A model generated the notes under the pieces. It made no database searches, was not told where the DNA came from, and saw only the letters and a program-made list of their open reading frames with translations. The translations under genes were made by a program, and so were the position numbers. A stretch of 64,000 nt of DNA from Jiangella mangrovi (GTDB lineage: Bacteria; Actinomycetota; Actinomycetes; Jiangellales; Jiangellaceae), in the NCBI RefSeq assembly GCF_014204975.1, contig NZ_JACHMM010000001.1, forward strand, positions 2,542,001 to 2,606,000, given 5' to 3'. Shown here one piece after another: positions 36,328-52,518 of the stretch; the first letter of the stretch is position 1; each line of letters begins with the position of its first letter.

Positions 36328-37257
36328 TCACCAGGCGATGGCGGCCTTGACGAAGCCGGGCTCCTTGGCGACCAGCGCCTCGAAGGCGGCGTCCACCTGG
36401 TCGAGGGCGAAGCGGTGAGTGACCAGCGCGCCGACGTCGATGCGGCCGGCGGCCACGAGGTCGAGGCCGCGCCGGACGCTCTCGCGTAGGCGGTCGCGGT
36501 CGCGGACGTGGGCGTTGACGACGTCGATGGCCTTCCAGTTCCACGTTCGCAGGTCGACGGTGCGCGGCTCCTGGTGGTAGCCCATGATCGACAGCACGCC
36601 GTGCGGGCGGACCAGTGTCGTCGCGAGGTCGAGGCCGGGTGCGGTGCCGGACGCCTCGACGACGACGTCGAAGGCGTCGTCGTGCGCAGTACCCGCGGCC
36701 TCGCCAGGCGCCACCGCGGCGTCCGCGCCGTGCACCAGGGCCAGCTCGCGCGCGTCCGGCCGCGGGTCGATCGCCACGACCTGCCGGGTCCCCGCGTGCC
36801 GCAGGAGCTGCAGCAGCACCAGCCCCATGAACCCGGTCCCGACGACGGCGACCCGGTCGCCGGTGTCGAGGCGGGTCCGGCGCAGCGCCTCGACGACGCA
36901 GCCGAGCGGCTCGCCGATGGCCTCGGCCGGGTCCAGGCCGGGCGGCACCGGGACGAGGTCGCGCACGTCGCCGGTGGCGTGGTCGGCGAACGCGGCGTCG
37001 ACGCGGCCGGTGACGAGGTCGCCCGCCGCGAACGCCGTCACATCGGGCCCGACGGCGACGACCTCGCCCACCGGCTCGTGCCCCAAGACCGCAGGCTCGC
37101 CGGCCGTCCAGTCGGCGACCTCGCTCGCACATACCCCGCTGACCAGGACCTTCAGCAGGACCTCGCCGTACCCGGGCTCCGGCAGCTCCACGGACCGCAC
37201 GGCCGACGTCCGCGGCCCGGTCAGCTCACTCCGCCGCGTCCTCACCATCGGACTCAC
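36328..37257 (-). CDS. Medium-chain zinc-type alcohol/polyol dehydrogenase
   Basis: 309 residues, MDR superfamily. Catalytic zinc ligands are Cys43 (GVCASEV), His60 and Glu61 (GHEPVGEVV). The Rossmann motif is VGTGFMG (139-145). The usual structural-zinc lobe with four cysteines is missing, and the protein is shorter than typical sorbitol dehydrogenases. It probably oxidises a sugar alcohol or hydroxy-acid in the catabolic locus. Its GTG start at 37257 overlaps the ASRT stop by four bases (GTGA); ATG at 37248 is an alternative. Confidence 0.87.
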   Translation of the reverse strand: MSPMVRTRRSELTGPRTSAVRSVELPEPGYGEVLLKVLVSGVCASEVADWTAGEPAVLGHEPVGEVVAVGPDVTAFAAGDLVTGRVDAAFADHATGDVRDLVPVPPGLDPAEAIGEPLGCVVEALRRTRLDTGDRVAVVGTGFMGLVLLQLLRHAGTRQVVAIDPRPDARELALVHGADAAVAPGEAAGTAHDDAFDVVVEASGTAPGLDLATTLVRPHGVLSIMGYHQEPRTVDLRTWNWKAIDVVNAHVRDRDRLRESVRRGLDLVAAGRIDVGALVTHRFALDQVDAAFEALVAKEPGFVKAAIAW

Positions 37258-37616
37258 CGGGCCGGATACGCGATGGTCGACATCAGGGCGTTCGCGGCCT
37301 GCCGCGAGTCCAGCCGCGTGTGCTGCACCACCACCGGCACGTCACTGTGCAGCACGACGCTGTAGTCGACGCCCGCCGGAACGCCCAGCGCGCCGAGCTG
37401 CTGGTGGTACGCCCGCCGCGCCGGGACCGGCAGGACGTGCGGGCCGTCCGGCTCACGGTCGGTGAAGTAGACCCAGAGCTCCACCGTCGCGTCGGCCGCC
37501 CCCGCGTTGAGGATGCAGACGCTCTCGTGACTGGCCAGAGCCGGGTCGTCGCCGCTGCTGCCGGGCGGGATGTACCCGTCGGCGACCACCCAGACCGTCG
37601 AACCGATCGGCTCCAC
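37254..37616 (-). CDS. Anabaena sensory rhodopsin transducer (ASRT) family protein
   Basis: 120 residues. The WVVADGYIPPGSSGDDPALASHESVCILNAG opening and WVYFTDREPDGPHVLPVPARR match the small beta-sandwich ASRT family (PF07100). The founding member interacts with a sensory rhodopsin, but there is no rhodopsin gene here. The gene lies between an SDR and a dehydrogenase gene and overlaps the latter, as is common for this family in sugar catabolism operons, where its role is unknown but a carbohydrate-binding function is suspected. Confidence 0.8.
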   Translation of the reverse strand: MEPIGSTVWVVADGYIPPGSSGDDPALASHESVCILNAGAADATVELWVYFTDREPDGPHVLPVPARRAYHQQLGALGVPAGVDYSVVLHSDVPVVVQHTRLDSRQAANALMSTIAYPAR

Positions 37617-37637: not shown

Positions 37638-38411
37638 TCAGAAGTCGTTGGCGCTCTTCGCCATCAGGCCGCCGTCGCAGACCAGGTGGGACCCGGTGAC
37701 GTACGACGACTCGTCGGACAGCAGCCACAGCACCGCCGCGGCCACCTCGTCGGGCCGGCCGAGCCGCCCGAGGGGGACCTGCGTCGCGGCGGCGGCCCGG
37801 ATCCGGTCCAGGTCCGCGCCGCCGGCGGTCAGCATCGCCGTCTCGGTGGCGCCGGGCACGACGGCGTTGACGCGGATGCCGTGCGGCGCGTAGTCCAGCG
37901 CCGCGGACCGGACGAACGCCGACACCCCGCCCTTCGACGCCGCGTAGGCGCTGTTGCCGCCGCCGGAGTGACCGACGAACGCGGCCGGCGACGACGTGCA
38001 GACGACGGAGCCGCCGCGGCCGGCCGCGACCAGCCGGCGCAGCGCCTCGCGGCAGGTCAGGAACACGCCGACCAGGTTGACGGCGACGACGCGCTCCCAG
38101 TCCGCGGCCGGGAACTCGTGCAAGGAGCCGTTGACCTCGATGCCGGCGTTGGCGAACACCGCACTCGGGTCGCCGACGGCGTCGGCCACCGCCGCGAACG
38201 CCGTCGCCACCGATGCCTCCGACGAGACGTCACATGCGACCGCCACGGCGTCGGGCGCACCTGCCGCCCGCGCGGCCGCAGCTGCCGCCGTCGCCGCCGA
38301 TTCGTCCACGTCGAGGGCCGCCACCCGGGCTCCGCGGGAAGCTGCCGCCAGCAGGACCGCCCGGCCGATGCCGGAGCCCGCGCCGGTGACGGCGACCGTC
38401 TCAGGCCACAT
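37638..38411 (-). CDS. Short-chain dehydrogenase/reductase
   Basis: 257-residue classical SDR: NAD(P) motif TGAGSGIG (9-16), NAG motif FANAG (86-90), catalytic Ser near 140-141, Tyr156 and Lys160 in YAASK. Asp34 after the second strand favours NAD. Probably oxidises a sugar or sugar-acid hydroxyl. Its ATG overlaps the end of gntR by 11 bases; the ASRT gene follows 21 bases later, so all four leftward genes form one operon. Confidence 0.92.
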   Translation of the reverse strand: MWPETVAVTGAGSGIGRAVLLAAASRGARVAALDVDESAATAAAAAARAAGAPDAVAVACDVSSEASVATAFAAVADAVGDPSAVFANAGIEVNGSLHEFPAADWERVVAVNLVGVFLTCREALRRLVAAGRGGSVVCTSSPAAFVGHSGGGNSAYAASKGGVSAFVRSAALDYAPHGIRVNAVVPGATETAMLTAGGADLDRIRAAAATQVPLGRLGRPDEVAAAVLWLLSDESSYVTGSHLVCDGGLMAKSANDF

Positions 38412-39075
38412 CGTCGCCGTCCGAACCGCCGGGCGCGAGGTGGATGTGGATGTGCCGCTCGACGGCGTCCAGCACGGCCTCGCGGTCGCCGGCGCGGATG
38501 ACGTCGAGCAGCTCCTGGTGCTGCCGTGCCACCTCGGCGGGGTCGGAGTGCGCCGGCGCGTCGCGGCGGAAGTAGGCGCGCACCCGCGGCTGGATGGTCT
38601 TCCACATCTGCAGGCAGTGCCGCTGCTCGGAGCGGGTGATGACCAGTTCGTGGAAGCGGATGTCGAGGTCGGCCAGCCGTTCGGCCTCGCCGCCGGACGC
38701 CGCCACCAGCATGTCGTCGACCATTCCCTGCAGCTCGTCGAGGTCGCCGGGGGCGAGCTTGTCCAGTGCCTTGCCGAACGCGAACCGCTCGAGCGTGATC
38801 CGGATCGGCACCAGGACCTGCTCGACCTCGTCCTGCGAGACGCCCAGCACCTCGCTGCCGCGGTACGGGTAGGACGCGACCAGCCCCTCCTGCTCGAGCT
38901 GGCGCAGCGCCTCGCGGATGGGGGCGCGGCTGGTGCCGAGCTCCGCGGCGAGGTCGAGCTCGATCAGCCGGTCGCCGGGCTTGAGCCGGCCACTGGTGAT
39001 CGCCTCGCGCAGGATCTCGGCGACGTGCTCGCGCCGCGACAGGCTCGGTACCCGTCGCAAGCCCAGCCCGGTCAT
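38401..39075 (-). CDS. GntR-family regulator, FadR subfamily (FCD domain)
   Basis: 224 residues. The winged helix (about 12-75) contains REHVAEILREAITSGRLKPGDRLIELDLAAELGTSRAPIREALRQLEQEGL, followed by an all-helical FCD effector domain (about 85-215) with the metal/acid-binding pattern DLDIRFHELV and HQELLDVIRAGDREAVLDAVERHI. Effectors are commonly organic or sugar acids. It is the first gene of the leftward operon and faces the ABC importer operon; a candidate operator lies between them. Confidence 0.92.
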   Translation of the reverse strand: MTGLGLRRVPSLSRREHVAEILREAITSGRLKPGDRLIELDLAAELGTSRAPIREALRQLEQEGLVASYPYRGSEVLGVSQDEVEQVLVPIRITLERFAFGKALDKLAPGDLDELQGMVDDMLVAASGGEAERLADLDIRFHELVITRSEQRHCLQMWKTIQPRVRAYFRRDAPAHSDPAEVARQHQELLDVIRAGDREAVLDAVERHIHIHLAPGGSDGDDVA

Positions 39076-39216: not shown

Positions 39217-40581
39217 ATGAACCTCCGTCACCGTGCGACCGCGCTTGTCGCGCCCGGTGCCGCAGCCATCGCCGTCGTCACCGTCCTCGCCGCGTGCAGC
39301 ACGAGCGAGTCCGCCCGGCCCGCGGAGGAACCCGCGGCCGACGACGCCGCCGTCGCCGCCGCGCAGGATGCGGCACGAGAAGCCGCCGGCGGCGAGGAGC
39401 TCGGCGGCAGCGTGACGATGCTCGGCGTGCTGGGCGGCGAGGAGCTCGACGCGTTCCTCAGCGTCGTCGCGCCGTTCGAGGACGCCACCGGCATCGAGGT
39501 GCAGTACGAGGGCACCCGCGACTTCGCCGCCGTCCTGCAGACCCGGGTCGACGGCGGCAACCCGCCGGATCTCGTCGCGACACCGGCCATCGGCGAGATG
39601 TCGGCGCTGGCCGAGCAGGGCGAGCTGGTCGACCTGAACGGCGTCGTCGACGCCGCCGTGCTCAGCGCGAACTACCCGGCCAGCATGCTCGAGACCGGCA
39701 CCGCCGGCGGCGAGCTGTTCGGCCTGTACAACACCGTCAACCTGGGCGGGCTGATCTGGTACGACCCGAGCCGCTACGACGGCCCCACCGAACCGGCCAG
39801 CTGGGACGAGCTGCAGGCGTGGGCGCGCGACAAGGCGGCGCAGGGCGAGACGCCCTGGTGCGTCGGCCTCGAGAGCGGCGCCGCGAGCGGCTGGCCGGCC
39901 GCGGACTTCATCGACGAGATCCTGCTCCGCCAGGCCGGCCCGGAGTTCCACCGCGCCTGGCGCGAGGGCGCCGAGCCGTGGACGTCGCCACAGGTGAAGC
40001 AGGCCTTCGAGACGTACGGCGAGATGATCGCCGACGGCATGGTCTACGGCGGGACGACGACGGTGCTCAGCACCGACTTCTCGCAGGCCGCCAACCCCAT
40101 GTTCGCCGACGAGCCCGGCTGCTCCCTGATCCAGCAGGCCACGTTCATGGGCGGGATCATCACCGACGCCTTCCCGGACCTGGTGCCCGGCGAGGACCTC
40201 GACTTCTTCCCCGCACCCGACTTCAATCCGGAACATCCGGGCATCGCTTCCATCTCCGGCGAGATCCTCGGCATGATCACCGAGACGCCGCAGTCGGCCG
40301 CGCTGACCCGCTATCTCGCGTCGACCGAGGCCGGCACGCTGATCGCGGCGACCGGGCGCTGGCTCTCGCCGAACGTCACCGTCGCCGCTGACGCCTACGA
40401 GGACCCGTTCCTGCGCCGGGCTCAGGAGGTCCTGACCGAGGCGGAGGGGACGTATCCGCTGGGCAACTCGCTGATGCCGCAGTCCGAGGTGGACGCGTTC
40501 TGGCAGTCCGGGCTGGCGTTCGCGCAGAACCCGGGCGACCTGGACGCGATCCTGCAGGGCATCGAGGACGCCCGGGGATGA
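39217..40581 (+). CDS. ABC transporter substrate-binding lipoprotein (family 1, carbohydrate-type)
   Basis: 454 residues with a lipoprotein signal (AAAIAVVTVLAAC, Cys27), an acidic linker and a family-1 solute-binding fold (GGSVTMLGVLGGEELDAFLSVVAPFEDATGIEVQYEG; then YNTVNLGGLIWYDPSRYD). It captures a sugar or sugar derivative outside the membrane for the two permeases encoded next. AGGAG precedes the ATG. The stop overlaps the next start (ATGA). Confidence 0.92.
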   Translation: MNLRHRATALVAPGAAAIAVVTVLAACSTSESARPAEEPAADDAAVAAAQDAAREAAGGEELGGSVTMLGVLGGEELDAFLSVVAPFEDATGIEVQYEGTRDFAAVLQTRVDGGNPPDLVATPAIGEMSALAEQGELVDLNGVVDAAVLSANYPASMLETGTAGGELFGLYNTVNLGGLIWYDPSRYDGPTEPASWDELQAWARDKAAQGETPWCVGLESGAASGWPAADFIDEILLRQAGPEFHRAWREGAEPWTSPQVKQAFETYGEMIADGMVYGGTTTVLSTDFSQAANPMFADEPGCSLIQQATFMGGIITDAFPDLVPGEDLDFFPAPDFNPEHPGIASISGEILGMITETPQSAALTRYLASTEAGTLIAATGRWLSPNVTVAADAYEDPFLRRAQEVLTEAEGTYPLGNSLMPQSEVDAFWQSGLAFAQNPGDLDAILQGIEDARG

Positions 40582-41549
40582 TCGCCGATCGGATCCTCCT
40601 CACGCTGGCGGCGACGGCCGTGATCGTCGTCGCCGGTTGGGCCTACCTGCGCCTCGGCGACCGCGCCCTGGCCGCGCTGCCCCACGGGGCGTACCGGAGG
40701 CTCGTGCCCTGGCTGTTCGCCGCCCCGGCGGTCGCGATGGTGCTGCTCACGCTCGCCGCGCCGGCCCTCATCACCGTGGTCTGGAGCTTCTTCGGCGCCG
40801 ACGGCGGGTTCGAGGGCCTCGCCAACTACGCGCAGACACTGTCCGACGAGGTCACCCGCATCGCGCTGCGCAACACCGTGCTCTGGGTGGTGCTGCTGCC
40901 GACGCTCGCGGTGCTGGTCGGGCTGGCGATCGCGGTGCTGGCCGACCGGGTCCGCTACGGCGCGCTGGTGAAGGCGGCGCTGTTCCTGCCGATCGCGATC
41001 TCGGCCGTCGCGGCCGGGGTGATCTGGAGCTTCATGTACGACTACCAGCCGCCGGGCGCCGCGCAGACCGGCACCCTGAACGCCGTCGTGACGGCGCTCG
41101 GCGGCGAGCCGGTCTCGTGGATCATCGACACCGCCACCAACAACTACGCGCTGATCGGCGCGACGCTGTGGACCCAGGCCGGGTTCGCCATGGTGATCTT
41201 CGACGCGGCACTGCGGTCGGTGCCGGGCGAGCTGCTCGAGGCGGCCCGGCTGGACGGCGCCTCGGAGTGGGCGGCGTTCCGGCACGTCACGCTGCCGTTC
41301 CTGATGCCGACGGTGGTGGTCGTGGCGACGACGATGACGGTGGTCGCGCTCAAGGCGTTCGACATCGTCTACGTGATGACCAACGGCAACTACGGCACCG
41401 ACGTGCTGTCGACCGTCATGTACCGCGCGCTGTTCACCGCCAAGGACAACGGGCTGGCCGGCGCCGTCGCGACGATCCTCATGCTCACCGTCGCGCCGAT
41501 CATGATCGCCAACGTGCGGCAGTTCCGCCGCGAGACCGGGGCCGCGTGA
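40578..41549 (+). CDS. ABC sugar transporter permease (MalF/UgpA-like)
   Basis: 323 residues, eight or so membrane helices; the N-terminal helix ILLTLAATAVIVVAGWAYLRLG is extra to the standard six. The EAA loop EAARLDGASEWAAFRHVTLPF contacts the ATPase. Overlaps both neighbours by a few bases. No ATPase gene is in the operon, so a shared MsmK-type ATPase elsewhere is likely. Confidence 0.92.
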   Translation: MIADRILLTLAATAVIVVAGWAYLRLGDRALAALPHGAYRRLVPWLFAAPAVAMVLLTLAAPALITVVWSFFGADGGFEGLANYAQTLSDEVTRIALRNTVLWVVLLPTLAVLVGLAIAVLADRVRYGALVKAALFLPIAISAVAAGVIWSFMYDYQPPGAAQTGTLNAVVTALGGEPVSWIIDTATNNYALIGATLWTQAGFAMVIFDAALRSVPGELLEAARLDGASEWAAFRHVTLPFLMPTVVVVATTMTVVALKAFDIVYVMTNGNYGTDVLSTVMYRALFTAKDNGLAGAVATILMLTVAPIMIANVRQFRRETGAA

Positions 41550-42388
41550 TGGCGGCGGCGCTGCGGCGGATCCCGGTGCACGTGGTCGTGATGGGCGTGG
41601 CCGCGGTCTGGGTGATCCCGCTGCTCGGGCTGGCGGTCAGCGCGTTCCGGCCGTCCTGGGCGGTGCTGTCGTCGGCCTGGTGGGAGTCGTTCGCGCTGCC
41701 CGGCGACTACACGCTGGAGAACTACCGGCGCGTGCTCGACCGCGACGGCATGGCGCTGAGCCTGTTCAACAGCCTCGCGGTGGTGGTGCCGGCGACGCTG
41801 CTGACGGTGGCCGTCGGCGCTGCCGCGGCGTACACGCTGGCCGGTATGCGGTTCCGGCTGCGCTCGGCGGTGCTGCTGACGACGGTCGCGCTGATCATCG
41901 TGCCGATCCAGATCACGCTGGTGCCGCTGCTGCGGATGTTCAGCACGCTCGACCTCACCGGCAGCTTCCTCGGCATCTGGCTGGTGCACCTGGGGTTCGG
42001 GCTGCCCTTCGCGATCTACCTGCTGCACAACTTCTTCGCCGCGATCCCGAGGGAGCTGTTCGAGGCCGCCGAGATGGACGGCGCCGGCCGCGGCCAGATC
42101 TTCTTCTCGATCGTGCTGCCGGTGGCCCGCCCGGCGCTGGCGGCGCTGGCGATCTTCGACTTCGTGTGGACCTGGAACGACCTGCTGGTCGCGCTGATCT
42201 TCATGGGCGGCTTCCGCGACGTCGCGCCGATGACGGTCGCGGTGTCGCAGCTGGTCGCCTCGCGCGGCGACGGCTGGGAGATCCTCACGTCCGCCGCCGT
42301 GCTGTCGGTGCTGGTGCCGATGGCCGTCTTCGTCGCCCTGCAGCGGCACTTCGTCCGCGGCCTGCTGGCCGGTGTCTCGAAAGGATGA
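41549..42388 (+). CDS. ABC sugar transporter permease (MalG/UgpE-like)
   Basis: 279 residues with six membrane helices and the EAA loop EAAEMDGAGRGQIFFSIVLPVARP. The ATG at 41549 shares one base with the preceding stop (TGATG), and its own stop overlaps the next ATG. It pairs with the preceding permease. The downstream gene is a secreted-looking hydrolase domain fused to a glucosidase, but neither has a signal, so breakdown is expected after uptake. Confidence 0.92.
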   Translation: MAAALRRIPVHVVVMGVAAVWVIPLLGLAVSAFRPSWAVLSSAWWESFALPGDYTLENYRRVLDRDGMALSLFNSLAVVVPATLLTVAVGAAAAYTLAGMRFRLRSAVLLTTVALIIVPIQITLVPLLRMFSTLDLTGSFLGIWLVHLGFGLPFAIYLLHNFFAAIPRELFEAAEMDGAGRGQIFFSIVLPVARPALAALAIFDFVWTWNDLLVALIFMGGFRDVAPMTVAVSQLVASRGDGWEILTSAAVLSVLVPMAVFVALQRHFVRGLLAGVSKG

Positions 42389-45291
42389 GTAGACCCATGA
42401 CCGTGCGGATCGGCTTCGGCCGGACAGACCTCACTCCGCCCCTCGGCGTCGAGCTGGCCGGGTTCGGCCCGTTCCTGGGCCGGCGCGCGACGTCGGTGCA
42501 CGCTCCGTTGTACGCCCGGGCGATCGCGGTGGCCTCAGGTGTCGACGGCGGGCGCTGGGTGCTGGTGAGCTGCGACCTGCTCGGTGTCTCGGCCGCCATC
42601 GTCGACGACGTCGTCGCGCGGGTGGCGGATGCGACCGGCTGGCACCCCGGCGAGGTGGTCGTGCACGCCACCCACAACCACTCGGGCCCGGCGACCGTCG
42701 AGAACGTCGGCTGGGGTGAGCCCGACGAGCGGTACGTCGCGGGGGTGGCGGAGCTGATCGCCCGCGCGTGTGTCGAGGCGATCGCCGCGCTGGCGCCGTC
42801 GACCGTGCGGCACGCCGTCGTCCCGCTGGAGGAGTTCGCGCACAACCGCATGCTGCCGTCGCGCGACCCGTCGCTGATCGACTCCGGCGTGCACGTGCTG
42901 CGGGTCGACCACGGCGGCGAGCTGGCCGGGTTCGTCGCCTCCTACTCGTGCCACCCGGTGATCTGCTGCGAGGAGACGTCCGCGGTGCACGGCGACTACC
43001 CCGGCGAGGCGCTGCGGATCGTCGAGGCGGCGCACCCCGGGGCGACCGGCGTCTTCCTGCAGGGCGCGCTCGGCGACATCAACCCGCTCTACGCGCACGG
43101 CCCGGCGGACGAGTCCATGGTCGCGCTCGAGCTGTTCGCGGGCCGGTTCGCCGACGCGGTGTCCGCGGGGCTGGCGTCCGCCGAGCCGCTCCCCACGGAC
43201 GGTGACGCCGTCGCCGTCGTCAAACAGGAGATCCCGTACGAGCTGGCGCCGTACGACCTCGACGAGCTGCGCCGGCGGCGGGACGAGGGCGACGAGGTCA
43301 CCGCTGTGTCGTTGGGGCGGACCGTCGCCGCGCTGGAGGCCGGGGAGGACGTGCGCCGCCCGCTGTGGATGCACGCGCTGCGGCTGGGCCCGCTGACCCT
43401 GCTCGGCTACAACGTCGAGGTGTTCCACGGCATCAAGCGCCGGCTGCAGGAGGCGGTGGGCGAGAACTGCCTGGTGCTGTCGACGACGAACGGCTGGCTC
43501 GGCTACGCGCCGACGCACGACGCGTACGAGCCGCCGGCCGACCCGTACCCGGCGTACGAGGTGCCGATCATCGCCTGCCATCTGCCGTTCCGGCCCGACA
43601 TCGAGGACGACCTGGTGGCCGCCGGGGTGCGGGCGGCCGGCCTGGTCGGCGGGGCGGGCTCGGACGAGGACTGGTGGCGCGGCGCCGTGGTCTACGAGTG
43701 CCACCTGCCGAGCTTCCGCGACGGGTCCGGCGACGGCATCGGCGACCTCGAGGGGCTGATCGAGGGCCTGGACTACCTGCGCGACCTGGGCGTCGACGCC
43801 GTCTGGACCGGGCCGTTCTACCGCTCGCCGCTGCTGGACCAGGGCTTCGACGTGTCGGACTACCTCGACGTCGAGCCGGTGTTCGGTTCCCTGGAGAAGT
43901 TCGACCGGCTGGTCGCGGCCGCGCATGAGCGGGGCATCAGGGTGATCGTCGACTACATCCCGAACCACACCTCGGACCGGCACCCGTGGTTCGTCGCGTC
44001 GCGGTCGTCGCGGGACGACCCGATGCGGGACTGGTACGTGTGGCGTGACCCGGCGCCCGGCGGCGGCGTGCCGAACAACTGGACCAGCGAGGCCGGCGGG
44101 TCGGTGTGGGAGTACGACGAGCCGACCGGGCAGTACTACCTGCACTCGCACCTGGTGGAGCAGCCCGACCTCAACTGGCGCAACGCCGAGGTGCGCAAGG
44201 CCCTGCTGGACGTGCTGCGGTTCTGGCTGGACCGCGGCGCCGACGGCGTGCGTATCGACGTCGCGCACATGCTGCTGAAGGACCCAGAGTTCCGCGACAA
44301 CCCGGCGGCGCCCGGTGGGAACCACAACGCCTTCGACCTGCAGCACCCCGACTTCGGCACCCAGCTGCACGTGCACGACCGCCGGCACCCGGACACGTTC
44401 ACGGCGCTGGCCGAGATCCGCGCCGTCGCCGACGAGTACGCCGGGTCGCGCCTGACGATCGCCGAGATCGAAGCGATGCCGTGGGCCGACTGGGCCGAGT
44501 ACTACTCCGCCGGCATGCACCTGCCGTTCCCGTTCCGGCTGCTCGAGACGCACTGGCGGGCCGACCTGCTGCGCTCGGAGCTGGCCGCCCTGTACGCGGC
44601 GCTCCCCGACGGCGCCTGGCCGATCGTCGCGCTGGGCAACCACGACCGGGTGCGGCTGGCCACCCGGCTCGGTCCCGCGCAGGCGCGGGTGGCCGCCGTC
44701 CTGCTGCTCACGCTGGCCGCGACGCCGTGCCTGCTCTACGCCGACGAGCTGGGCATGACCGACCAGCCGGTGCCGGTGGAGCGGCAGCGCGACTACTTCG
44801 CCCGCACCCACGGCGGCGTGAGCCGGGACCCGTCGCGCACCCCGATGCCCTGGACCGACGGCGTCAACGGCGGGTTCTCGTCGGCTCCGGAGGCGTCGCT
44901 GTGGCTGCCGGTGTCGCACGACGTGGAGCGGCTGAACGTGGTGGCGCAGCTGGCCGACCCGGAGTCGATGCTGCGGCTGTACCGGGCGCTGACCCGGCTG
45001 CGGCACGCGTCGCCGGCGCTGCGGCGCGGGTCGATCGCGTTCGACATCCCGGACGGCGGGACCGAGGCGGTACTCGCGTACCGGCGTGCGCACGGGAACG
45101 ACCAGAAGCTCGTGCTGCTCAACCTCACCGACCGGCCGGCGTCGGTGCCGGTCGCGGTGACCGGGCGGGTGCTGCTGTCGACGGTGTCGGCGGCCGGCGC
45201 TCCGATGCGGCGGGTCGTTGCCGAGGAGTTCGAGCTGGCCGCCGGCGAGGCGGTCGTCATCGACGTGGAGAGGGACCATGCGGATCACTGA
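42385..45291 (+). CDS. Fusion: neutral/alkaline ceramidase-like amidohydrolase + GH13 alpha-glucosidase
   Basis: 968 residues in one open frame. Residues 1-425 resemble the catalytic domain of neutral/alkaline ceramidases: GRTDLTPPLGVELAG near the start, the zinc-type HATHNHSGP (His97, His99), CHPVICCEE then GDYPGEAL, and FLQGALGDINP. Residues 430-968 are a GH13 amylase-type glucosidase: WWRGAVVYECHLPSFRDG, DYIPNH (523-528), GVRIDVA with nucleophile Asp625, IAEIEA with likely acid/base Glu694, and GNHDRVR (752 on), then a beta-rich C-domain. Both halves keep catalytic residues. No signal peptide. It is coupled to the importer upstream and overlaps the enolase gene by 14 bases. I infer deacylation and deglycosylation of one imported compound. 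Confidence 0.88.
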   Translation: MSRPMTVRIGFGRTDLTPPLGVELAGFGPFLGRRATSVHAPLYARAIAVASGVDGGRWVLVSCDLLGVSAAIVDDVVARVADATGWHPGEVVVHATHNHSGPATVENVGWGEPDERYVAGVAELIARACVEAIAALAPSTVRHAVVPLEEFAHNRMLPSRDPSLIDSGVHVLRVDHGGELAGFVASYSCHPVICCEETSAVHGDYPGEALRIVEAAHPGATGVFLQGALGDINPLYAHGPADESMVALELFAGRFADAVSAGLASAEPLPTDGDAVAVVKQEIPYELAPYDLDELRRRRDEGDEVTAVSLGRTVAALEAGEDVRRPLWMHALRLGPLTLLGYNVEVFHGIKRRLQEAVGENCLVLSTTNGWLGYAPTHDAYEPPADPYPAYEVPIIACHLPFRPDIEDDLVAAGVRAAGLVGGAGSDEDWWRGAVVYECHLPSFRDGSGDGIGDLEGLIEGLDYLRDLGVDAVWTGPFYRSPLLDQGFDVSDYLDVEPVFGSLEKFDRLVAAAHERGIRVIVDYIPNHTSDRHPWFVASRSSRDDPMRDWYVWRDPAPGGGVPNNWTSEAGGSVWEYDEPTGQYYLHSHLVEQPDLNWRNAEVRKALLDVLRFWLDRGADGVRIDVAHMLLKDPEFRDNPAAPGGNHNAFDLQHPDFGTQLHVHDRRHPDTFTALAEIRAVADEYAGSRLTIAEIEAMPWADWAEYYSAGMHLPFPFRLLETHWRADLLRSELAALYAALPDGAWPIVALGNHDRVRLATRLGPAQARVAAVLLLTLAATPCLLYADELGMTDQPVPVERQRDYFARTHGGVSRDPSRTPMPWTDGVNGGFSSAPEASLWLPVSHDVERLNVVAQLADPESMLRLYRALTRLRHASPALRRGSIAFDIPDGGTEAVLAYRRAHGNDQKLVLLNLTDRPASVPVAVTGRVLLSTVSAAGAPMRRVVAEEFELAAGEAVVIDVERDHADH

Positions 45292-46429
45292 CATCAGAGC
45301 GGCCGGGCTGCGCGGCGCGACGCCGAAGGGCGGCTGGGCGCGCGAGCTGGACCCGGACGACAACGTCCATACGCTCGTCGCGGTGCACACCGACGAGGGC
45401 GTGGTGGGCATCGGCAGCGTGTTCTCCAGCGAGACACTGGTGCGGGCGGCGCTGGACACGCTGCGCCCGCTCGCCGTCGGCGCCGACCCGCGCGAGCCGG
45501 ACCGCGTCAGCCAGATCCTGCACGAGAACACCTTCTGGCTGGGCCGCGGCGGCGCGGTCACGCACACCGTCAGCGGCATCGACATCGCGCTGTGGGACAT
45601 CCTCGGGCAGGTCACCGGGCTGCCGGTGAGCACGCTGCTGGGCGGGCGGTACCGCGAGCGGGTCCGGCCGTACGCCTCGGTGCTGATGGACGACCCGCCG
45701 GTGCTGAAGGACGACCTCGCGCGGCTGGTGGCGCAGGGGTTCACCGCGTTCAAGATCGGCTGGGGGGCGTTCGGCCGGGTGAGCGACGCCGTCGACGAGG
45801 AGATCGTGCGGGCCGCGCGCGAGACCGTCGGGCCGGACGCGCTGCTCGCCGTCGACGCCGGCGGATCCGACGCGTTCTGGTCGCGCGGGCTGTCGTGGGC
45901 GGTGCGGACGGCGGACATGCTGGCCGGGTACGACGTCGCGTGGTTCGAGGAGGCGCTGCGCCCCGACGACGTCGAGGGCTTCGCGTCGCTGAGGCAGCGC
46001 TCGCGGGTGCCGATCTCCGGCGGCGAGGTGCTGACCCGCCGGCAGGACTTCCACAGCTTCCTCACCGCGGGCGCGTTCGACATCGTGCAGCCGGACACCA
46101 CCAAGGGCGGGGGGCTCTCGGAGTCGCGCCGCGTGGCCTGGCTGGCCGCCGAGTTCGGGGTCGCGTTCGTGCCGCACGGCTGGAACACCGCCGTCGGGCT
46201 GGCCGCCGACCTGCAGCTGGCGGCGGCGCTGCCGGGCACGGAGCTGGTGGAGTACAAGACCGGGTCGGCCTACATCGACGAGCTGGCGGCGGATGGGTTC
46301 GCCCTGGACGCCGACGGGCTGCTGGCGGTGCCGTCGTCGCCGGGGCTGGGGTTGCGGGTGGATCCGGACGCGCTGGAGAGATATGCCCCGGGCCATTCGC
46401 TGTTCGATGCGGCCGGGGGTGCGCGATGA
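45278..46429 (+). CDS. Enolase-superfamily enzyme (mandelate racemase/muconate lactonizing-like dehydratase)
   Basis: 383 residues. An N-terminal capping domain and a barrel: metal ligands Asp193 (AVDAGG), Glu224 region (WFEEAL) and Glu250 (SGGE); QPDTTKGGG follows; His300 in PHGWN is a candidate general base. The usual KxK motif reads FKIGW, so only the first Lys (Lys159) remains. A one-base dehydration of a sugar acid is likely, as in galactonate/rhamnonate dehydratases. Start overlaps the fusion gene; end overlaps the PLP enzyme gene. Confidence 0.88.
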   Translation: MRITDIRAAGLRGATPKGGWARELDPDDNVHTLVAVHTDEGVVGIGSVFSSETLVRAALDTLRPLAVGADPREPDRVSQILHENTFWLGRGGAVTHTVSGIDIALWDILGQVTGLPVSTLLGGRYRERVRPYASVLMDDPPVLKDDLARLVAQGFTAFKIGWGAFGRVSDAVDEEIVRAARETVGPDALLAVDAGGSDAFWSRGLSWAVRTADMLAGYDVAWFEEALRPDDVEGFASLRQRSRVPISGGEVLTRRQDFHSFLTAGAFDIVQPDTTKGGGLSESRRVAWLAAEFGVAFVPHGWNTAVGLAADLQLAAALPGTELVEYKTGSAYIDELAADGFALDADGLLAVPSSPGLGLRVDPDALERYAPGHSLFDAAGGAR

Positions 46430-47730
46430 GCGCCGTCGCGCTGCCGGCCGTCCTGGGCGGTTCGCCCGTCATCACGCCGGAGACCGACCCGGTCTGGCCG
46501 GAGGTCGGCGCCGTGGAGAGCGCGATCCTGGGCGAGATCACCGACGGCGGGCAGTGGGTCGGCTACGCCAACCACCCGGCCAAGTGGCGGGCGGTGCTCG
46601 AGCAGGTCGTCGCCGACACCAGCGGCTACCGGTACGGCGTCGGCCAGCCCAACGGGACGCTGGCGATCGCGAGCGGCCTGCGGGCGCAGCTGTTCGCCCG
46701 GGGCTCTTCGTGGGCGGAAGGACGGTCCGAGGTGCTGGTGGCCGATCTGACGCACGCGTCGGCGCACCACGGCGTCGTGCTCGGGGTGGCGGCTCAGCTG
46801 GGCCGGGCGCCGCGACTGGTCCCGGTCCCGGCGAAGCTCGACGCGACGATGGACGAGGAGGTGGTGGCGTCGTACCTGGCGTCGCATGCCGGCCGCGTCC
46901 TGGCCGTCGTCCCGGCGACCATGTACGGCAACTTCGGCGCGATCGACCGGATCGCCGCGCTGGGCCGCGAGTACGACGTCGTCGTCCACCACGACAACGC
47001 GCTGGGCGGCGCGGCCCGGTACGACGGCGAGGGTGCGCCGACGGCGTCGATCTCCGGACAGGGCGGCGGCAAGGCGGCGCCGTCGTGCGAGGGCGGTCTG
47101 ACGGTGACCTCGGACCCGGAGCTGGCGGCGCTGCTGCGCGCCGACACCGACTGCGGCACCGGGCCCGGCCGCCTCGACCCGATCCCGTACGCCGAGGTCG
47201 GGCCGATGATGGCCGGCAACCAGCGCATGGGCGAGCAACCGGCCGCCCTGCTGCTGGTGCAGTGGCTGCGCGCGCTGCACGCACGGCTGCAGATGCGGGA
47301 GAACCGGCGGCTGATCCGTTCGTTGATCGACGATCGCTCGGTGTTCCCGGAGCCGGTGCTCTGGAACCCGCCGCCGGACGCGGAGTACCCGCCGTTCTTC
47401 TCGCTCTACCTGTCCTGCACCGACGCGCTGGAGTCGTCGCTCGGCCTGACGCCGAAGGACCTGCGGGTGACGCTGGCCGCCGAGGGCGTGTGGGCCGAGG
47501 CCGGGTTCACGCCGACGCACCAGGACCCGGCCTGGAAGCAGTGGGCCGACGGGGTGCCGCTGTCGTACGACACGTCGGCGCGGGTGGTCGAGCGGGCGGT
47601 GTTCGTGCACACCAAGTTCCTGCGCGACCCGCGGTTCCCCGACGTGCTGGCCGAGATCCTCCGGCGCGTGGTCGCGCATCGCGACCGGCTGCGGGGGATC
47701 GGGGACGGGCGGCCCGAGCCGGTCTGGTGA
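46426..47730 (+). CDS. DegT/DnrJ/EryC1/StrS-type PLP-dependent enzyme
   Basis: 434 residues, fold-type I PLP enzyme. Asp190 (VVHHDNALGG) would contact the pyridine nitrogen and Lys216 (GQGGGKAAPSCEGG) would bind PLP; the usual SFHxxK is replaced by a glycine-rich variant, but the spacing to EGG is kept. N-terminal GQWVGYANHPAKW and GVGQPNGTLAI match the family sugar-site opening. In secondary metabolism these are sugar aminotransferases; in a catabolic operon removal of an amino group from a keto-amino sugar is plausible. It overlaps the enolase gene by four bases (ATGA) and ends the operon. Confidence 0.82.
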   Translation: MSAVALPAVLGGSPVITPETDPVWPEVGAVESAILGEITDGGQWVGYANHPAKWRAVLEQVVADTSGYRYGVGQPNGTLAIASGLRAQLFARGSSWAEGRSEVLVADLTHASAHHGVVLGVAAQLGRAPRLVPVPAKLDATMDEEVVASYLASHAGRVLAVVPATMYGNFGAIDRIAALGREYDVVVHHDNALGGAARYDGEGAPTASISGQGGGKAAPSCEGGLTVTSDPELAALLRADTDCGTGPGRLDPIPYAEVGPMMAGNQRMGEQPAALLLVQWLRALHARLQMRENRRLIRSLIDDRSVFPEPVLWNPPPDAEYPPFFSLYLSCTDALESSLGLTPKDLRVTLAAEGVWAEAGFTPTHQDPAWKQWADGVPLSYDTSARVVERAVFVHTKFLRDPRFPDVLAEILRRVVAHRDRLRGIGDGRPEPVW

Positions 47731-48131: not shown

Positions 48132-48704
48132 ATGGGCAGGGTGCTGTGGCACGTGACGATGTCGGTCGACGGGTTCATCGCCGGGCCGGACCACGACATG
48201 GACTGGGTGTTCGAGCGGCCCGCGGCGCCGGAGGCCTCGACCGACGTGGTGCCGCGGGTGGGCGCGATCCTCTGCGGCCGGCACACCTACGACGTCGGGC
48301 AGCGCGACGTCGGGAAGGGCAGCGGCGAGGCGTTCGAGGGCGAGTGGTCCGGCCCGGAGTTCGTGCTGACGACGCATCCGCCGGCCGAGGCGGACAGCGG
48401 GGCGGCCGGGTCGGCCGGGTCGGCCGGGTCGGCTGGGGCGCGGACGTTCCTGTCCGGTGACATCGGCGCCGCGGTCTCGACGGCCATGGCCGCCGCCGGC
48501 GACGGCGACCTGCTGGTGCTCGGAGCCGACGTGGCGCTGCAGTGCCTCGAGGCCGGGCTGGTCGACGAGCTGCTGGTCGACCTCGCTCCGCTCCTCCTCG
48601 GCGACGGCGTGCGGCTCTACGGCGGCCCGGGCCGCGAGCGGGTCGACCTCGAGCTCGTCGAGGCGACCGGCACCGTCCTGCGCTACCGAGTGCTCAAGGC
48701 CTAG
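48132..48704 (+). CDS. Dihydrofolate reductase/RibD C-terminal-family protein
   Basis: 190 residues of the RibD_C/DHFR fold (YwjB/YyaP-like): opening HVTMSVDGFIAGPDHDMDWVF, GAILCGRHTYDVG, and LLVLGADVALQCLEAGLVDELLVDLAPLLLGDGVRLYGG. It may reduce a pterin-like or flavin-like substrate; not a housekeeping folate gene. A run of Ala-Gly-Ser repeats (GSAGSAGSAG, 9-base units) interrupts it near residue 95. The stop TAG is made from the TA target site plus the first base of the insertion sequence; the same TAG would also exist without the insertion. Confidence 0.87.
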   Translation: MGRVLWHVTMSVDGFIAGPDHDMDWVFERPAAPEASTDVVPRVGAILCGRHTYDVGQRDVGKGSGEAFEGEWSGPEFVLTTHPPAEADSGAAGSAGSAGSAGARTFLSGDIGAAVSTAMAAAGDGDLLVLGADVALQCLEAGLVDELLVDLAPLLLGDGVRLYGGPGRERVDLELVEATGTVLRYRVLKA

Positions 48705-49830
48705 TGTCCTGAGTCGTTAATTCGCGTGCAGTATCTGGCGATGGATTCGAGGATCTGGTCGGCGGTCTTGGTCCACACGTAGGGCCTGGGGTTGTCGTTC
48801 CAGGTGTCGATCCAGGCGCGGATGTCGGTGTTGAGTTCGCGGACTGACCGGTGGGTGCCGCGTTGGAGTTTCTTCGTGGTCAGCTCGCCGAACCAGCGTT
48901 CGACCAGGTTGAGCCATGAGGAGCTGGTCGGGGTGAAGTGGAGCGTGAAGCGGGGGTGTTCGATCAGCCATCGCTTCACGGCCGGTGTCTTGTGGGTCGA
49001 GGCGTTGTCGAGCACGACGTGCACGTCGAGTTCCGGGCACCTCGGCGTCGATCTTGGCCAGGAACTTCTTGAACTCGATCGCTCGGTGGCGGGCGTGCAG
49101 CGAGCCGATGACCTGGCCGGTGGCGAGGTCGAGGGCGGCGTAGAGGCTGGACGTGCCGTAGCGCTTGTAGTCATGGGTGGCGCGCTGCGGGGTGCCCGGG
49201 AGCATGGGCAGGATCGGGGCCGTGCGGTCCAGGGCCTGGATCTGGGACTTCTCGTCCACGCACAGCACCACGGCCCGCTCGGGCGGGTCGAGGTAGAGAC
49301 CCACGACGTCTTTGACCTTGTCGACGAACAGCGGGTCCTTGGACAGCTTCCACGACTCCTGCCGGTGCGGCTGCAGGCCGAAGGCCCGCCAGATCCGCGA
49401 GACCGCGGACTGCGACAGGCCCAGCTCGGCCGCCAGCGACCGAGTCGACCAGTGCGTCGCATCCTTCGGCGTCGTCTCCAGCGTCCGGGTGATCACCGCC
49501 TCGACCTGCTCGTCACCAACCGTGCGGGGCCGGCCAGGGCGCGGTTCATCAAGCAGGCCATCGAGTCGGTCGGCGACGAACCGCGAGCGCCACTTACGCG
49601 CACTCGACACCGCGATCCCGAGCTTCTGCGCGATCGCGGTGTTCCCCAGCCCGTCACCAGCGGCCAGCACGATCCGCGACCGCACCGCCAACGCATTCGC
49701 GCTCGTCGGCCGCCGCGACCACGTCAACAGCTGCGACCGCTCCTCATCAGTCAACGTCACAACAGGGGCAACCGGACTCGGCACCCGCAAAGCCTACCCA
49801 CTAAATACGAACTATTGACTCACGACACTA
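48702..49830 (-). mobile_element. IS630-family insertion sequence with TA target duplication
   Basis: TA at 48702-48703 and 49829-49830 flank a 1,125-base element. The ends are imperfect inverted repeats: TAGTGTCCTGAGTCGTTAATT at the left and the right end reading inward TAGTGTCGTGAGTCAATAG share about 20 of 24 bases. TA duplication is the IS630/Tc1 hallmark. The single internal gene is a frameshifted DDE transposase. It sits in the overlapping 3' ends of two convergent genes. Confidence 0.88.
48717..49790 (-). pseudogene. IS630-family transposase, frameshifted
   Basis: The N-terminal part (from GTG 49790) has a winged helix-turn-helix (TAIAQKLGIAVSSARKWRSRF and a second HTH after THWSTRS) and the first catalytic Asp in VVLCVDEKSQ. 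After KIDAEVP, near 49038, the frame continues out of register; the true downstream part in the +1 frame holds the second Asp (VVLDNASTHK) and the Glu (LNLVERWFGEL). So one extra base splits the DDE triad. It could be a decayed copy, a sequencing error, or a programmed +1 frameshift; no classic slippery run is visible. Confidence 0.85.
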
Positions 49831-50906
49831 GCCGGGCGCGGCGGGGCGACCGTGCCTTCGAGCGTCTGCGCGCAGGGCAGCAGGATCTGCCGCTCGTAGT
49901 CGCCGCCCGGATCGGTGATCAGCGAGGTCAGCAGCCGGACCGCACGCCGCCCCATGGCGTTGCGCGGCACCTGCAGCGACGCCCACGAGCGCCCGCCGAT
50001 CTCGCCGCCGGGATCGTCGACCAACAGCACGACGGAGAGGTCGTCGGGGATGGAGAGCCCGCGCAGGCCGGCCATGGCCGTCAGCACTCGCAGCAGCCCG
50101 ACCGACTCGACCACCACGACCGTCGCGCCGGCGTCGACCACGCCGTCGAGCCACTGGGCGGTCAGCTCGTCGGGCCGGTCGTAGGCGGGTTCGGGCACTG
50201 GGAGCCCGAACCGGCCGAGCGCGCTGCTGAAGCCGTCCCACCGGTCGACCTGGGGCTCGTCGCGGGCAGGGTCGCCGAGGTAGGCGAACGTGCGGTGGCC
50301 CATGGCGACCAGCTCGTCGACGATGCGGCCGGTACCGGAGCGGTAGTCGCCGCCGACGTAGCTGATCTCAGTACCGGGGACCTCGCGGTGGCCGATGTAG
50401 ACGAACGGGTAACCGTCCTGGGCCAGCCGGGCGAGGTCGTCGCGGTGCGGGTGGTAGCCGAGCAGCAGGCTGCCGGTCGCCTGCCGCAGGCTGTTGGTGC
50501 TGCCGTGGTAGATGCGCCGGACGCCGTCCTCGTCGGGTGCGGCGGTGAACAGCACGAGGTTGCAGCCCTCGACACCGGACTGCTCCTCGATGCCGCGCAG
50601 GAACTCGAAGTAGTAGTCGCGCGCGCTGGTCGGGAAGATCGGCTCGAAGGTGTGGACGCCGAGCAGCAGCGGCGCCGCCACCGGCCGCCCCTGCAACCAG
50701 CCCAGGGAGCGCGGCTGCAGGGGTGCGACGTAGTTCAGCCGGCGGGCCGCCTCGACGACGCGGCGCTGGGTCTCGGGTGAGATGCGGGCGTGTTCAGCCG
50801 CGCCGCCCAGCACCATGGACACCGTCGACTGCGAGACGCCGGCCTCGCGGGCGACGTCGGCCTGGCGCGACCGGCGGGTCACCTCAGTGCCTTCGGAGTT
50901 CGTCAC
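49812..50906 (-). CDS. LacI-family transcriptional regulator (3' end altered by IS630)
   Basis: 364 residues. The HTH (about 13-60) is SRQADVAREAGVSQSTVSMVLGG, with hinge residues, and the ligand domain follows (LLLGVHTFEPIFPTSARDYY to LLPCAQTLEGTVAPP). The last residues SVVSQ and the stop come from the inserted element; without it the gene would end ARP and then TGA. The effector domain core is intact, so the repressor should work. It is 19 bases downstream of a FAD oxidoreductase gene and likely controls both that gene and the divergent operon. Confidence 0.9.
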   Translation of the reverse strand: MTNSEGTEVTRRSRQADVAREAGVSQSTVSMVLGGAAEHARISPETQRRVVEAARRLNYVAPLQPRSLGWLQGRPVAAPLLLGVHTFEPIFPTSARDYYFEFLRGIEEQSGVEGCNLVLFTAAPDEDGVRRIYHGSTNSLRQATGSLLLGYHPHRDDLARLAQDGYPFVYIGHREVPGTEISYVGGDYRSGTGRIVDELVAMGHRTFAYLGDPARDEPQVDRWDGFSSALGRFGLPVPEPAYDRPDELTAQWLDGVVDAGATVVVVESVGLLRVLTAMAGLRGLSIPDDLSVVLLVDDPGGEIGGRSWASLQVPRNAMGRRAVRLLTSLITDPGGDYERQILLPCAQTLEGTVAPPRPASVVSQ

Positions 50907-50925: not shown

Positions 50926-52467
50926 TCAATGGCCGGCCGGCAGGATGGCGCCACCGAGCTCGAGCTCGCGCCGGAGCGCGGCGTACTCGATGTCCTGGAC
51001 CGCGACCTTATCGGTGATCGCCTGTCCCGCGGCGGCTCCCACGACCTCGCCGAGCATCATGAACACCGGCTCCATGCGGGCCGACGCGAACGCGACGTGC
51101 GAGGCGGAGATGGCGGAGGCCACCAGCAGGTTCGGGGCCTCGCCGGCCTTGGGCGCCAGCGCGCGGTACGAGACGCCGAACGGCCTGGTCAGCGGCTGTT
51201 GCACGTTGCCCTCGTTGCGCGGCTGCCCGTCGACGAGGACGCGCTTGGCGTTGTGGGAGTCCATGACGTACGAGGCCAGCGCCACCGGGTCGGTGGCCCG
51301 GGCCGCTCCGGTGGCGTCGTGCTGGGTGATGACGTAGTCGGACACCATGCGCCGGGCCTCGCGGATGTAGAGCTGCGCCGGCCAATGCGAGGTGTCGGCG
51401 AACTCGCCCGGCGCGAGGCCGAAGGCGTTGGTGTCGTCGCGCACGGCGGCGGGCAGGCGCGGGTCGGTGGCCAGGAAGTGCAGCAGCCCCGCCTGGTAGC
51501 GCACGTGGTCCTGGAAGATCTCCTCACGGCGGGCGTAGCCGGCCTCGGGCCAGTCGTAGTTGGCGCCGATGTGGTCCGAGGAGAACGCGCCGTGGTTGTT
51601 CATGTCGTGGACGTCGCCGCGGACCCGCGTGGTGCGCCCGTACAGCTCGTAGCCGCCGGCCTCGACGTAGCGGCGCAGGAGCTCGTAACGGGCGGGGTCG
51701 TAGCCGTCGGGCCGGGGGAACGGCAGCCGCTTCGCGGACGTGGTGACGTGCAGCCGGAAGTTGTACGCCTGGATGCGCCGGTCACCGTCGCCGACCGTGC
51801 CGTAGGGGTCGGCCGAGATGCCCGGCAGCAGCCCGGACGACGGCCGGCCGGGGACGACGTAGGGGTCGACCGCGTACCGGAACTGGTGGTTGATGCTGTG
51901 CTGGACGCCGGCCACCGACTCGTCGTGGACCGTCGACGCCTCGCGGCCCAGCCGGTAGGTGACTCCTGCCGCCGCCAGCAGGTCGCCCTCGTAGGAGGCG
52001 TCGACGTAGACCTTGGCGCGGTACGTGCTGCCGTCGTCGGTGCGCAGCTCGGTGAGCCGGCCGCCGTCGCTGCGGACCGACTCGAGGTGCCGGCGGCGGT
52101 GCACCGCGACGCCGGCCTCGGCCAGCCAGCCCTCGAGGACCTCTTCGCCCACGTGCGCCTCGACGTCCCAGTGCGGCGCCGGCGCCCTGTAGGCGGCCGC
52201 GACGTCGTCGTAGAACGCCCGAGCCAGACCGCCGACCGTGCGCGCGTCGCCGACGTCGGTGGTGCCGAGCCCGCCCGTGGTCATGCCGCCGACGTGGTCG
52301 CCGAAGACCAGCAGCACGACCGACAGCCCGTCGCGGGCCGCCCGCACGGCCGCCGTGACGCCGCCGGAGGTGGCGCCGTAGACGACGACGTCGGCCTCCG
52401 CGTCCTCGGGCGGGCCGGAAGGCGGGAGGTAGTAGCGCAGGCCGGGCAGGGCAGGTTCGGACGTCAT
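50926..52467 (-). CDS. FAD-dependent oxidoreductase (PF12831-like), copy 1
   Basis: 513 residues. The dinucleotide site is VVVYGATSGGVTAAVRAARDGLSVVLL, then GGMTTGGLGTTD, VYVDASYEGDLLAAAGV, and a C-terminal SASHVAFASARMEPVFMMLGEVVGAAAG. The family is found beside glycoside hydrolases and is thought to oxidise sugars or their derivatives, but its chemistry is not well known. This copy resembles the one at 54339 more than the one at 52682. ATG at 52467 is chosen. Divergent from the operon beginning at 52682. Confidence 0.87.
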   Translation of the reverse strand: MTSEPALPGLRYYLPPSGPPEDAEADVVVYGATSGGVTAAVRAARDGLSVVLLVFGDHVGGMTTGGLGTTDVGDARTVGGLARAFYDDVAAAYRAPAPHWDVEAHVGEEVLEGWLAEAGVAVHRRRHLESVRSDGGRLTELRTDDGSTYRAKVYVDASYEGDLLAAAGVTYRLGREASTVHDESVAGVQHSINHQFRYAVDPYVVPGRPSSGLLPGISADPYGTVGDGDRRIQAYNFRLHVTTSAKRLPFPRPDGYDPARYELLRRYVEAGGYELYGRTTRVRGDVHDMNNHGAFSSDHIGANYDWPEAGYARREEIFQDHVRYQAGLLHFLATDPRLPAAVRDDTNAFGLAPGEFADTSHWPAQLYIREARRMVSDYVITQHDATGAARATDPVALASYVMDSHNAKRVLVDGQPRNEGNVQQPLTRPFGVSYRALAPKAGEAPNLLVASAISASHVAFASARMEPVFMMLGEVVGAAAGQAITDKVAVQDIEYAALRRELELGGAILPAGH

Positions 52468-52506
52468 GACTCCGGTTCTAGCATCAGCAGATACGAGTTG
52501 TCCATC

Positions 52507-52518
52507 GCTGATATCAGC
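52507..52518. promoter_or_regulatory. Candidate LacI operator (12-base palindrome)
   Basis: GCTGATATCAGC is a perfect palindrome 40 bases upstream of the leftward FAD oxidoreductase ATG, in the 214-base divergent region. A related half site ATCAGCA lies at 52483-52489. Even-length central symmetry suits LacI proteins; binding is inferred. Confidence 0.5.

What the first reader, a model, noticed from the sequence alone, without database searches (positions are those of the whole stretch)
42385..45291. Ceramidase-like amidase fused to a GH13 alpha-glucosidase
One 968-residue frame joins two domains I know only as separate proteins: a neutral/alkaline ceramidase-like zinc hydrolase (about residues 1-425) and a GH13 glucosidase (430-968). 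Both keep catalytic motifs (HATHNHSGP; DYIPNH, Asp625, Glu694, NHD at 752). There is no frameshift or stop at the seam near 43,672. The gene is coupled to a sugar importer. An enzyme that both removes an acyl amide and cleaves an alpha-glucoside would be new to me.
Basis: partly seen in the sequence, partly recalled or inferred. Interest (0 to 1): 0.8.

Follow-up and report, generated by a model that had tools for sequence, protein, structure and literature searches.

The report
Ceramidase-fold hydrolase fused to alpha-glucosidase
In the soil bacterium Jiangella two enzymes that are normally separate, a zinc hydrolase built like human neutral ceramidase and a sugar-cutting alpha-glucosidase, are encoded as one protein inside a sugar-uptake operon, which suggests that the ceramidase-like half works on sugars rather than on lipids.

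Summary
One open frame (42385-45291, +) encodes a ceramidase-fold domain and a GH13 alpha-glucosidase with no stop at the seam; the real start is probably 42397 (964 aa). The N half folds as the whole catalytic domain of neutral ceramidase (Z 40.6 to 2zws) and keeps the zinc-site residues, but lacks the ceramidase C-terminal domain. The GH13 half keeps its catalytic residues and is nearest to 3wy1. The fusion is no assembly accident: it occurs in 9 of 12 Jiangella genomes, its linker varies by whole codons, and both halves are under purifying selection. A sister genus has the same operon with two adjacent unfused genes. I found no such fusion elsewhere in the Actinomycetota genomes and plasmid records sampled. 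The operon (ABC sugar importer, enolase-superfamily enzyme, DegT-type enzyme) is inherited as a block. Several, not all, short ceramidase-fold relatives sit in amino-sugar operons. Best reading: a cytoplasmic enzyme that hydrolyses an amide (or ester) and an alpha-glucosidic bond of an imported, probably N-acylated amino-sugar glucoside. The substrate is inferred only. New domain combination of two known folds.

The parts
42397..43659 (+). N-terminal neutral-ceramidase-fold hydrolase domain (P0001 residues 5-425; probable true start codon at 42397)
   Evidence: Pfam PF04734; profile match to 2zws residues 6-483, E 3e-34; AlphaFold pLDDT 89.4, Foldseek TMq 0.79-0.81, VIA Z 40.6; start codon:
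43642..43671 (+). Seam or linker, 7 to 10 residues, varying by whole codons among nine species
43660..45291 (+). C-terminal GH13 alpha-glucosidase domain (first conserved motif WWRG at 43672) with DUF3459 part
   Evidence: Pfam PF00128, PF11941; nearest solved 3wy1 and 6aav, E about 1e-120; fold TMt 0.89 to 3wy4
39217..40581 (+). Sugar-type ABC solute-binding protein (SBP_bac_1); lipobox by eye
   Evidence: co-inheritance
40578..41549 (+). ABC permease 1 (BPD_transp_1); start overlaps the stop of the SBP gene
41546..42388 (+). ABC permease 2 (BPD_transp_1)
45278..46429 (+). Enolase-superfamily (MR_MLE) gene, sugar-acid dehydratase-like; start overlaps the end of the fusion gene
   Evidence: (below the family cut-offs)
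46426..47730 (+). DegT/StrS-like PLP enzyme, weakly like 2-deoxy-scyllo-inosose aminotransferases
   Evidence: (best E 1.8e-7)
38401..39075 (-). GntR/FCD regulator, divergent
   Evidence: also in L048 and L049
37638..38411 (-). Short-chain dehydrogenase
   Evidence: also in L048 and L049
37254..37616 (-). ASRT (Anabaena sensory rhodopsin transducer) family protein
   Evidence: present in L048 at 68%

Best explanation
This is a cytoplasmic bifunctional hydrolase. A small alpha-glucoside is imported by the ABC transporter encoded just upstream. The GH13 half cleaves the alpha-glucosidic bond by the usual retaining Asp/Glu mechanism. The ceramidase-fold half uses one zinc ion to hydrolyse an amide (less likely an ester or lactone) on the same molecule or its product, most plausibly an N-acyl group of an amino sugar. 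The freed amino sugar would then go to the DegT-type PLP enzyme, the short-chain dehydrogenase and the enolase-superfamily enzyme. Shown: the fusion, both folds (by prediction), kept active-site residues, conservation, operon linkage, an unfused neighbour pair in a sister genus. Inferred: zinc, amide chemistry, cytoplasmic location, that both sites serve one pathway. Guessed from context: an N-acylated amino-sugar glucoside as substrate.
For: Uninterrupted fusion in 9 of 12 Jiangella genomes. Median dN/dS over 36 pairs 0.245 (N half) and 0.237 (GH13); linker 0.67 with whole-codon indels; H97, H99, H190, E345, Y374 and D625, E694, D754 identical in all nine. The N-half profile aligns H97, H204, E411 and Y448 of 2zws to conserved residues, invariant in the 24 aligned family rows. 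Fold. SBP, enolase-type and DegT orthologues at 88-94% identity in all eight other fusion genomes, and none in the three Jiangella without the fusion. No hydrophobic leader at the N terminus, by eye. Relatives in amino-sugar operons: NagB-like, SIS, NagA-like, ceramidase-like and sugar ABC genes in 6 of 14 plasmid regions read; DegT and class III aminotransferase genes in 3 more; NanE, BadF-type kinase and SIS in a second Jiangella cluster. SIS within 6 kb of 14 of 38 ceramidase-like loci against 0 of 20 control stretches of 19 kb.
Against: No substrate or activity is known. The fused N half is a long branch and does not fall inside the supported SIS/NagA-linked clade; it groups only weakly (80/88) with haloarchaeal and Jiangellaceae rows, some beside DegT genes, so the amino-sugar argument is by family, not by close kin. 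Of 17 neighbour families tested only SIS (p 0.0011) and NagA-like (p 0.041) pass 0.05, uncorrected; DegT is 6 of 38 against 0 of 20 (p 0.084). Seeds came from the test loci and several loci are orthologous, so these p values are optimistic. Four of 14 plasmid regions show no amino-sugar genes, and one Jiangella paralogue type (L050, L054, L056) sits among what look like nucleotide-sugar genes. G020 lacks the ceramidase-like gene and the transporter yet keeps GH13, enolase-type and DegT genes, so the activities are separable. The full-length model (pTM 0.66) says nothing reliable about how the halves face each other.
Confidence: 0.42

Rival explanations
1. The fused protein is real, but the halves act in unrelated steps; the fusion only fixes a co-expressed stoichiometry, and the ceramidase-like half is an esterase or lactonase, for example on a sugar-acid lactone that feeds the enolase-superfamily enzyme.
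For: The enolase-superfamily neighbour is nearest to sugar-acid dehydratase models, below their cut-offs, with dehydrogenases across the divergent promoter. GH13 persists without the ceramidase-like part in G020.
Against: The fold is that of an amidase, and relatives are tied to amino-sugar genes in several lineages.
Confidence: 0.25
2. It is a true ceramidase or glucosylceramide-handling enzyme: GH13 removes glucose and the N half cleaves ceramide.
For: The N half has the neutral ceramidase catalytic fold and zinc residues.
Against: No C-terminal ceramidase domain (PF17048 not hit); no export signal by eye; a sugar importer beside it; glucosylceramide is beta-linked (recalled) whereas GH13 cuts alpha-glucosides; the fused domain lies outside the supported clade of long ceramidases.
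Confidence: 0.05
3. Two separate proteins are made in vivo, by internal initiation near the seam or by proteolysis of the short linker.
For: In-frame GTG (ATG in L006) codons lie 12-19 codons before the GH13 WWRG motif in all nine species.
Against: The Shine-Dalgarno-like AAGGAG before the ATG of the unfused GH13 gene in G021 has no counterpart that I could see at the seam of the fusions; linker indels keep frame.
Confidence: 0.1
4. The N half is catalytically idle and serves as a scaffold or sugar-binding module.
For: GH13 enzymes often carry accessory domains (general knowledge); the ceramidase-like gene is absent from the G020 operon.
Against: The zinc-site residues are identical in all nine and dN/dS is as low as in the GH13 half.
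Confidence: 0.08

Closest known systems
Neutral ceramidase (Pseudomonas aeruginosa 2zws; human 4wgk), PF04734
   Same: Whole catalytic domain fold, Z 40.6 and 38.7; aligned zinc-site residues
   Different: 17-22% identity, no C-terminal domain, no export signal by eye, fused to GH13, sugar operon
GH13 alpha-glucosidases 3wy1 (HaG) and 6aav (XgtA)
   Same: 39-40% identity and TMt 0.87-0.89; aligned catalytic residues
   Different: Stand-alone enzymes; here the C-terminal half of a larger protein
Alpha-glucoside ABC operons with a GH13 enzyme (agl type; Streptomyces and Sinorhizobium examples recalled, not searched)
   Same: SBP, two permeases and GH13 in one operon
   Different: Adds a ceramidase-fold domain, an enolase-superfamily gene and a DegT-type gene
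Short ceramidase-fold proteins in amino-sugar operons of Alphaproteobacteria (NagB-like, SIS, NagA-like, ceramidase-like, ABC)
   Same: Single-domain ceramidase fold next to a sugar ABC importer
   Different: No GH13 found there; phosphosugar enzymes not seen in the Jiangella operon; a different clade

Membership tests
Neutral/alkaline ceramidase superfamily (PF04734 fold) | Catalytic domain fold | tested here: met
   (predicted model)
Neutral/alkaline ceramidase superfamily (PF04734 fold) | Zinc-site residues equivalent to H97, H204, E411, Y448 of 2zws (their role as ligands is recalled) | tested here: met
   Alignment; invariant in 24 family rows and in nine fusions
Neutral ceramidase proper | C-terminal domain PF17048 | tested here: not met
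   No hit in the Pfam scan of P0001 at E 0.001
Neutral ceramidase proper | Groups with long ceramidases in a tree | tested here: not met
   Five rows that I labelled long ceramidases (by length; only L078 was checked for PF17048, 29.2 bits against a cut-off of 30.5) and L094 form a 100/100 branch without the fusion; deeper forks are weak
Neutral ceramidase proper | Hydrolysis of ceramide | not testable with these tools
   needs an assay
GH13 alpha-glucosidase | Barrel fold with catalytic Asp, Glu, Asp | tested here: met
   Alignment to 3wy1 puts D625 on D202 and E694 on E271 (counted by hand; D202N and E271Q mutants are named in the entry titles); the third Asp, 754 on 333, is recalled as catalytic
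GH13 alpha-glucosidase | Alpha-glucosidase activity and linkage specificity | not testable with these tools
   needs an assay
Amino-sugar N-deacylase (proposed role) | Close kin in amino-sugar operons | tested here: inconclusive
   Family-level association, but the fused domain is outside the supported SIS/NagA clade

The most novel reading that the evidence does not exclude
The fusion is a natural pointer to a hidden enzyme class: short ceramidase-fold proteins of bacteria and haloarchaea are zinc amidases of sugar metabolism (amino-sugar N-deacylases), not lipid enzymes, and Jiangella has joined one to an alpha-glucosidase to break down an as yet unknown N-acylated alpha-glucosyl amino sugar through a new catabolic route that uses a DegT-type enzyme and an enolase-superfamily enzyme.
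Probability: 0.33. Interest if true: 0.72.

Novelty: new variant of a known kind. Interest (0 to 1): 0.5.

Why it matters
Ceramidase-fold proteins of about 400-470 residues are labelled 'neutral/alkaline non-lysosomal ceramidase N-terminal domain-containing protein' in 13 of the 14 plasmid regions read (the 14th, says hypothetical), yet many of the operons point to sugars. A conserved natural fusion with a glycosidase gives a concrete, testable lead to what they do, and it warns against reading sphingolipid metabolism from this annotation. It also outlines an uncharacterised sugar operon.

Tried and rejected
Assembly error or frameshift at the seam: rejected by eight further orthologous fusions. 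Stop-codon readthrough: the TGA flagged in six loci is upstream of the start. Fusion elsewhere: none with a GH13 match among 97 ceramidase-like open frames in the loci scanned (the Jiangella fusion loci, L048 and L049 were left out of that scan, some loci overlap so these are not 97 independent genes, and loci exist only for part of the matches). Five of the longest frames were scanned with Pfam: two carry PKD domains, one a ceramidase C-terminal domain just below its cut-off, two nothing beyond E 0.001. One genome-contig scan with the N half found only five Jiangella loci out of 29 pattern matches; it reaches close relatives only, so lineages outside Actinomycetota were sampled only through plasmids (19 of 72,556 records; 14 of the 19 regions read; no GH13 there by annotation or). 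Other folds for the N half: among the 50 VIA rows listed, all besides ceramidases have Z of 6.5 or less over about 70 to 160 aligned residues and were not pursued. The NCBIfam top row for P0001 (NF051899, named beta-galactosidase BglA) is far below its cut-off (442.6 against 900) and was ignored.

Literature, listings only, no paper opened: no paper held all of neutral ceramidase, alpha-glucosidase, fusion and actinobacteria (0 papers). Nothing on ceramidase-like proteins in sugar operons or on such a fusion in the titles and abstract starts shown (1 of 1; 20 of 57; 15 of 88; 15 of 3,685; 3 of 3; 12 of 330; 10 of 102; 10 of 248). The human ceramidase structure paper is not held.

Weaknesses of the neighbour statistics: seeds for SIS, NagA, NanE and others were picked from the loci tested, orthologous loci were counted separately, no correction for 17 families, and the 20 controls came only from Actinomycetota genomes. 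The 15 families that do not pass p 0.05 include DegT, enolase, GH13, SBP and sugar permeases.
Full report
Observation. The frame 42385-45291 on the + strand is open throughout and gives 968 residues. Pfam places Ceramidase_alk at 8-220 and Alpha-amylase at 443-882, with DUF3459 behind it. The start is probably the ATG at 42397: the upstream ATG is followed by an in-frame TGA in six of the eight other loci and is out of frame in two, while MT(V/L)RIGFGRT is kept in all nine. The genes are packed: SBP 39217-40581, permeases 40578-41549 and 41546-42388, fusion to 45291, enolase-superfamily gene from 45278, DegT-like gene from 46426. The GntR/FCD regulator, a short-chain dehydrogenase and an ASRT protein are divergent.

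Is it real and how old? The window lies in a single-contig 7.16 Mb genome. Of 60 genomes searched, 9 carry the fusion, all among the 12 of this genus; G001, G002 and G005 lack it. The eight others are 86-90% identical to the window's protein. The linker differs in length by whole codons; median dN/dS over 36 non-independent pairs is 0.245 for the N half, 0.237 for the GH13 half and 0.67 for 11 linker columns. In a sister genus, G021 has the same operon with the two genes separate and adjacent, 65% and 75% identical; there the first gene ends in TGA, followed by a Shine-Dalgarno-like AAGGAG and an ATG. G020 has GH13, enolase-type and DegT genes next to the regulator but neither the ceramidase-like gene nor the transporter genes there; its best matches to the N half and the SBP are 34% and 30%. 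The fusion therefore probably arose once in the Jiangella lineage from adjacent genes; later fission in the sister genus was not tested.

What the halves are. A profile of 24 rows (a selection of the homologues found) hits 2zws over 6-483 at E 3e-34 and human 4wgk. The predicted N half (pLDDT 89.4) matches 2zws with Z 40.6, rmsd 3.0, 397 residues, and 4wgk with Z 38.7. H97, H204, E411 and Y448 of 2zws (zinc ligands, as I recall) align with residues invariant in the 24 rows. PF17048 is not found. The GH13 half is nearest to 3wy1 and 6aav, with D625 and E694 on D202 and E271. The full-length model has pTM 0.66, so domain packing is not interpreted.

Distribution. The N half matched 61 of 393 class genomes and, as a profile, 42 of 396 phylum genomes; the two sets overlap. 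In one search only the nine fusions and G021 exceed 38% identity. No other open frame with both domains was found among those scanned (limits under Tried and rejected).

Co-inheritance. In 22 family genomes, orthologues of the enolase-type gene (92-94%), DegT (88-93%) and SBP (88-91%) are present in all eight other fusion genomes; in the three Jiangella without the fusion the best matches are 38-39%, none and 31-32%. G021 keeps all three (82%, 55%, 70%); G020 keeps the first two (78%, 75%).

Function by company. Short ceramidase-like relatives lie with NanE, a BadF-type kinase and SIS in another Jiangella cluster, and with SIS and oligopeptide-type importers in the sister genus. Of 14 plasmid regions read, six alphaproteobacterial ones have NagB-like, SIS and NagA-like genes and a sugar ABC importer, with an AGE-type epimerase that passes Pfam in one and is assigned by similarity to it in the other five. 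Three haloarchaeal ones have DegT and class III aminotransferase genes, one has GH20, a D-aminoacylase and a class V aminotransferase, and four show no amino-sugar genes. SIS is near 14 of 38 loci against 0 of 20 controls, with the caveats given. The tree tempers this: SIS-linked rows need three changes and the fused domain is not inside their supported clade (99/95, 11 rows); with L048 it is a long branch, weakly joined (80/88) to haloarchaeal and Jiangellaceae rows, some beside DegT or other aminotransferase genes.

Mechanism. Established family knowledge gives GH13 a double displacement at Asp/Glu and neutral ceramidase a zinc-activated water on an amide. With an importer beside it and no leader peptide visible, the fusion most likely acts inside the cell on an imported small molecule. 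An N-acylated alpha-glucosyl amino sugar fits both sites and the DegT-type neighbour, but this is inference. An ester or lactone substrate is the main rival.

Verdict. A real, conserved fusion of two known hydrolase folds in an uncharacterised sugar operon, not found described in the searches listed; ordinary in its parts, new in its combination.

Noticed in passing
L051 7801-14559 (G000 C1 about 2,233,800-2,240,600): A second Jiangella cluster joins a ceramidase-like gene to NanE, a BadF-type kinase, a SIS protein and a sugar ABC importer; similar in L061 and L062.
   Followed up: partly
L114, L117, L118, L119, L121, L125: Alphaproteobacterial plasmids carry a conserved amino-sugar operon in which the NagA-like and ceramidase-like genes overlap by 4 bases in five of six; the role of a second hydrolase there is unexplained.
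   Followed up: partly
L057 8232-11050; L058 7242-15253: Small-genome actinomycetes have clusters of two to four ceramidase-like genes near an oligopeptide-type importer and a pair of genes that look like deacylases (recognised by eye, not searched).
   Followed up: no
window 48701-49790: Transposase-like reading frame (IS630-like by eye) split over two overlapping frames, shortly after the operon.
   Followed up: no
window 50926-63998: Three FAD-dependent oxidoreductase-like genes in a row (two by weak NCBIfam rows, one by eye), a LacI-like regulator beside them at 49812-50906, a 1145-aa protein and another solute-binding and permease set: a second sugar-type locus next door.
   Followed up: no
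window 37254-37616: An ASRT-family protein (PF07100, 146.7 bits) belongs to the conserved neighbourhood (also in L048).
   Followed up: partly
L049 7950-13693: G020 keeps regulator, dehydrogenase, GH13, enolase-type and DegT genes but lacks the ceramidase-like and transporter genes in between.
   Followed up: partly
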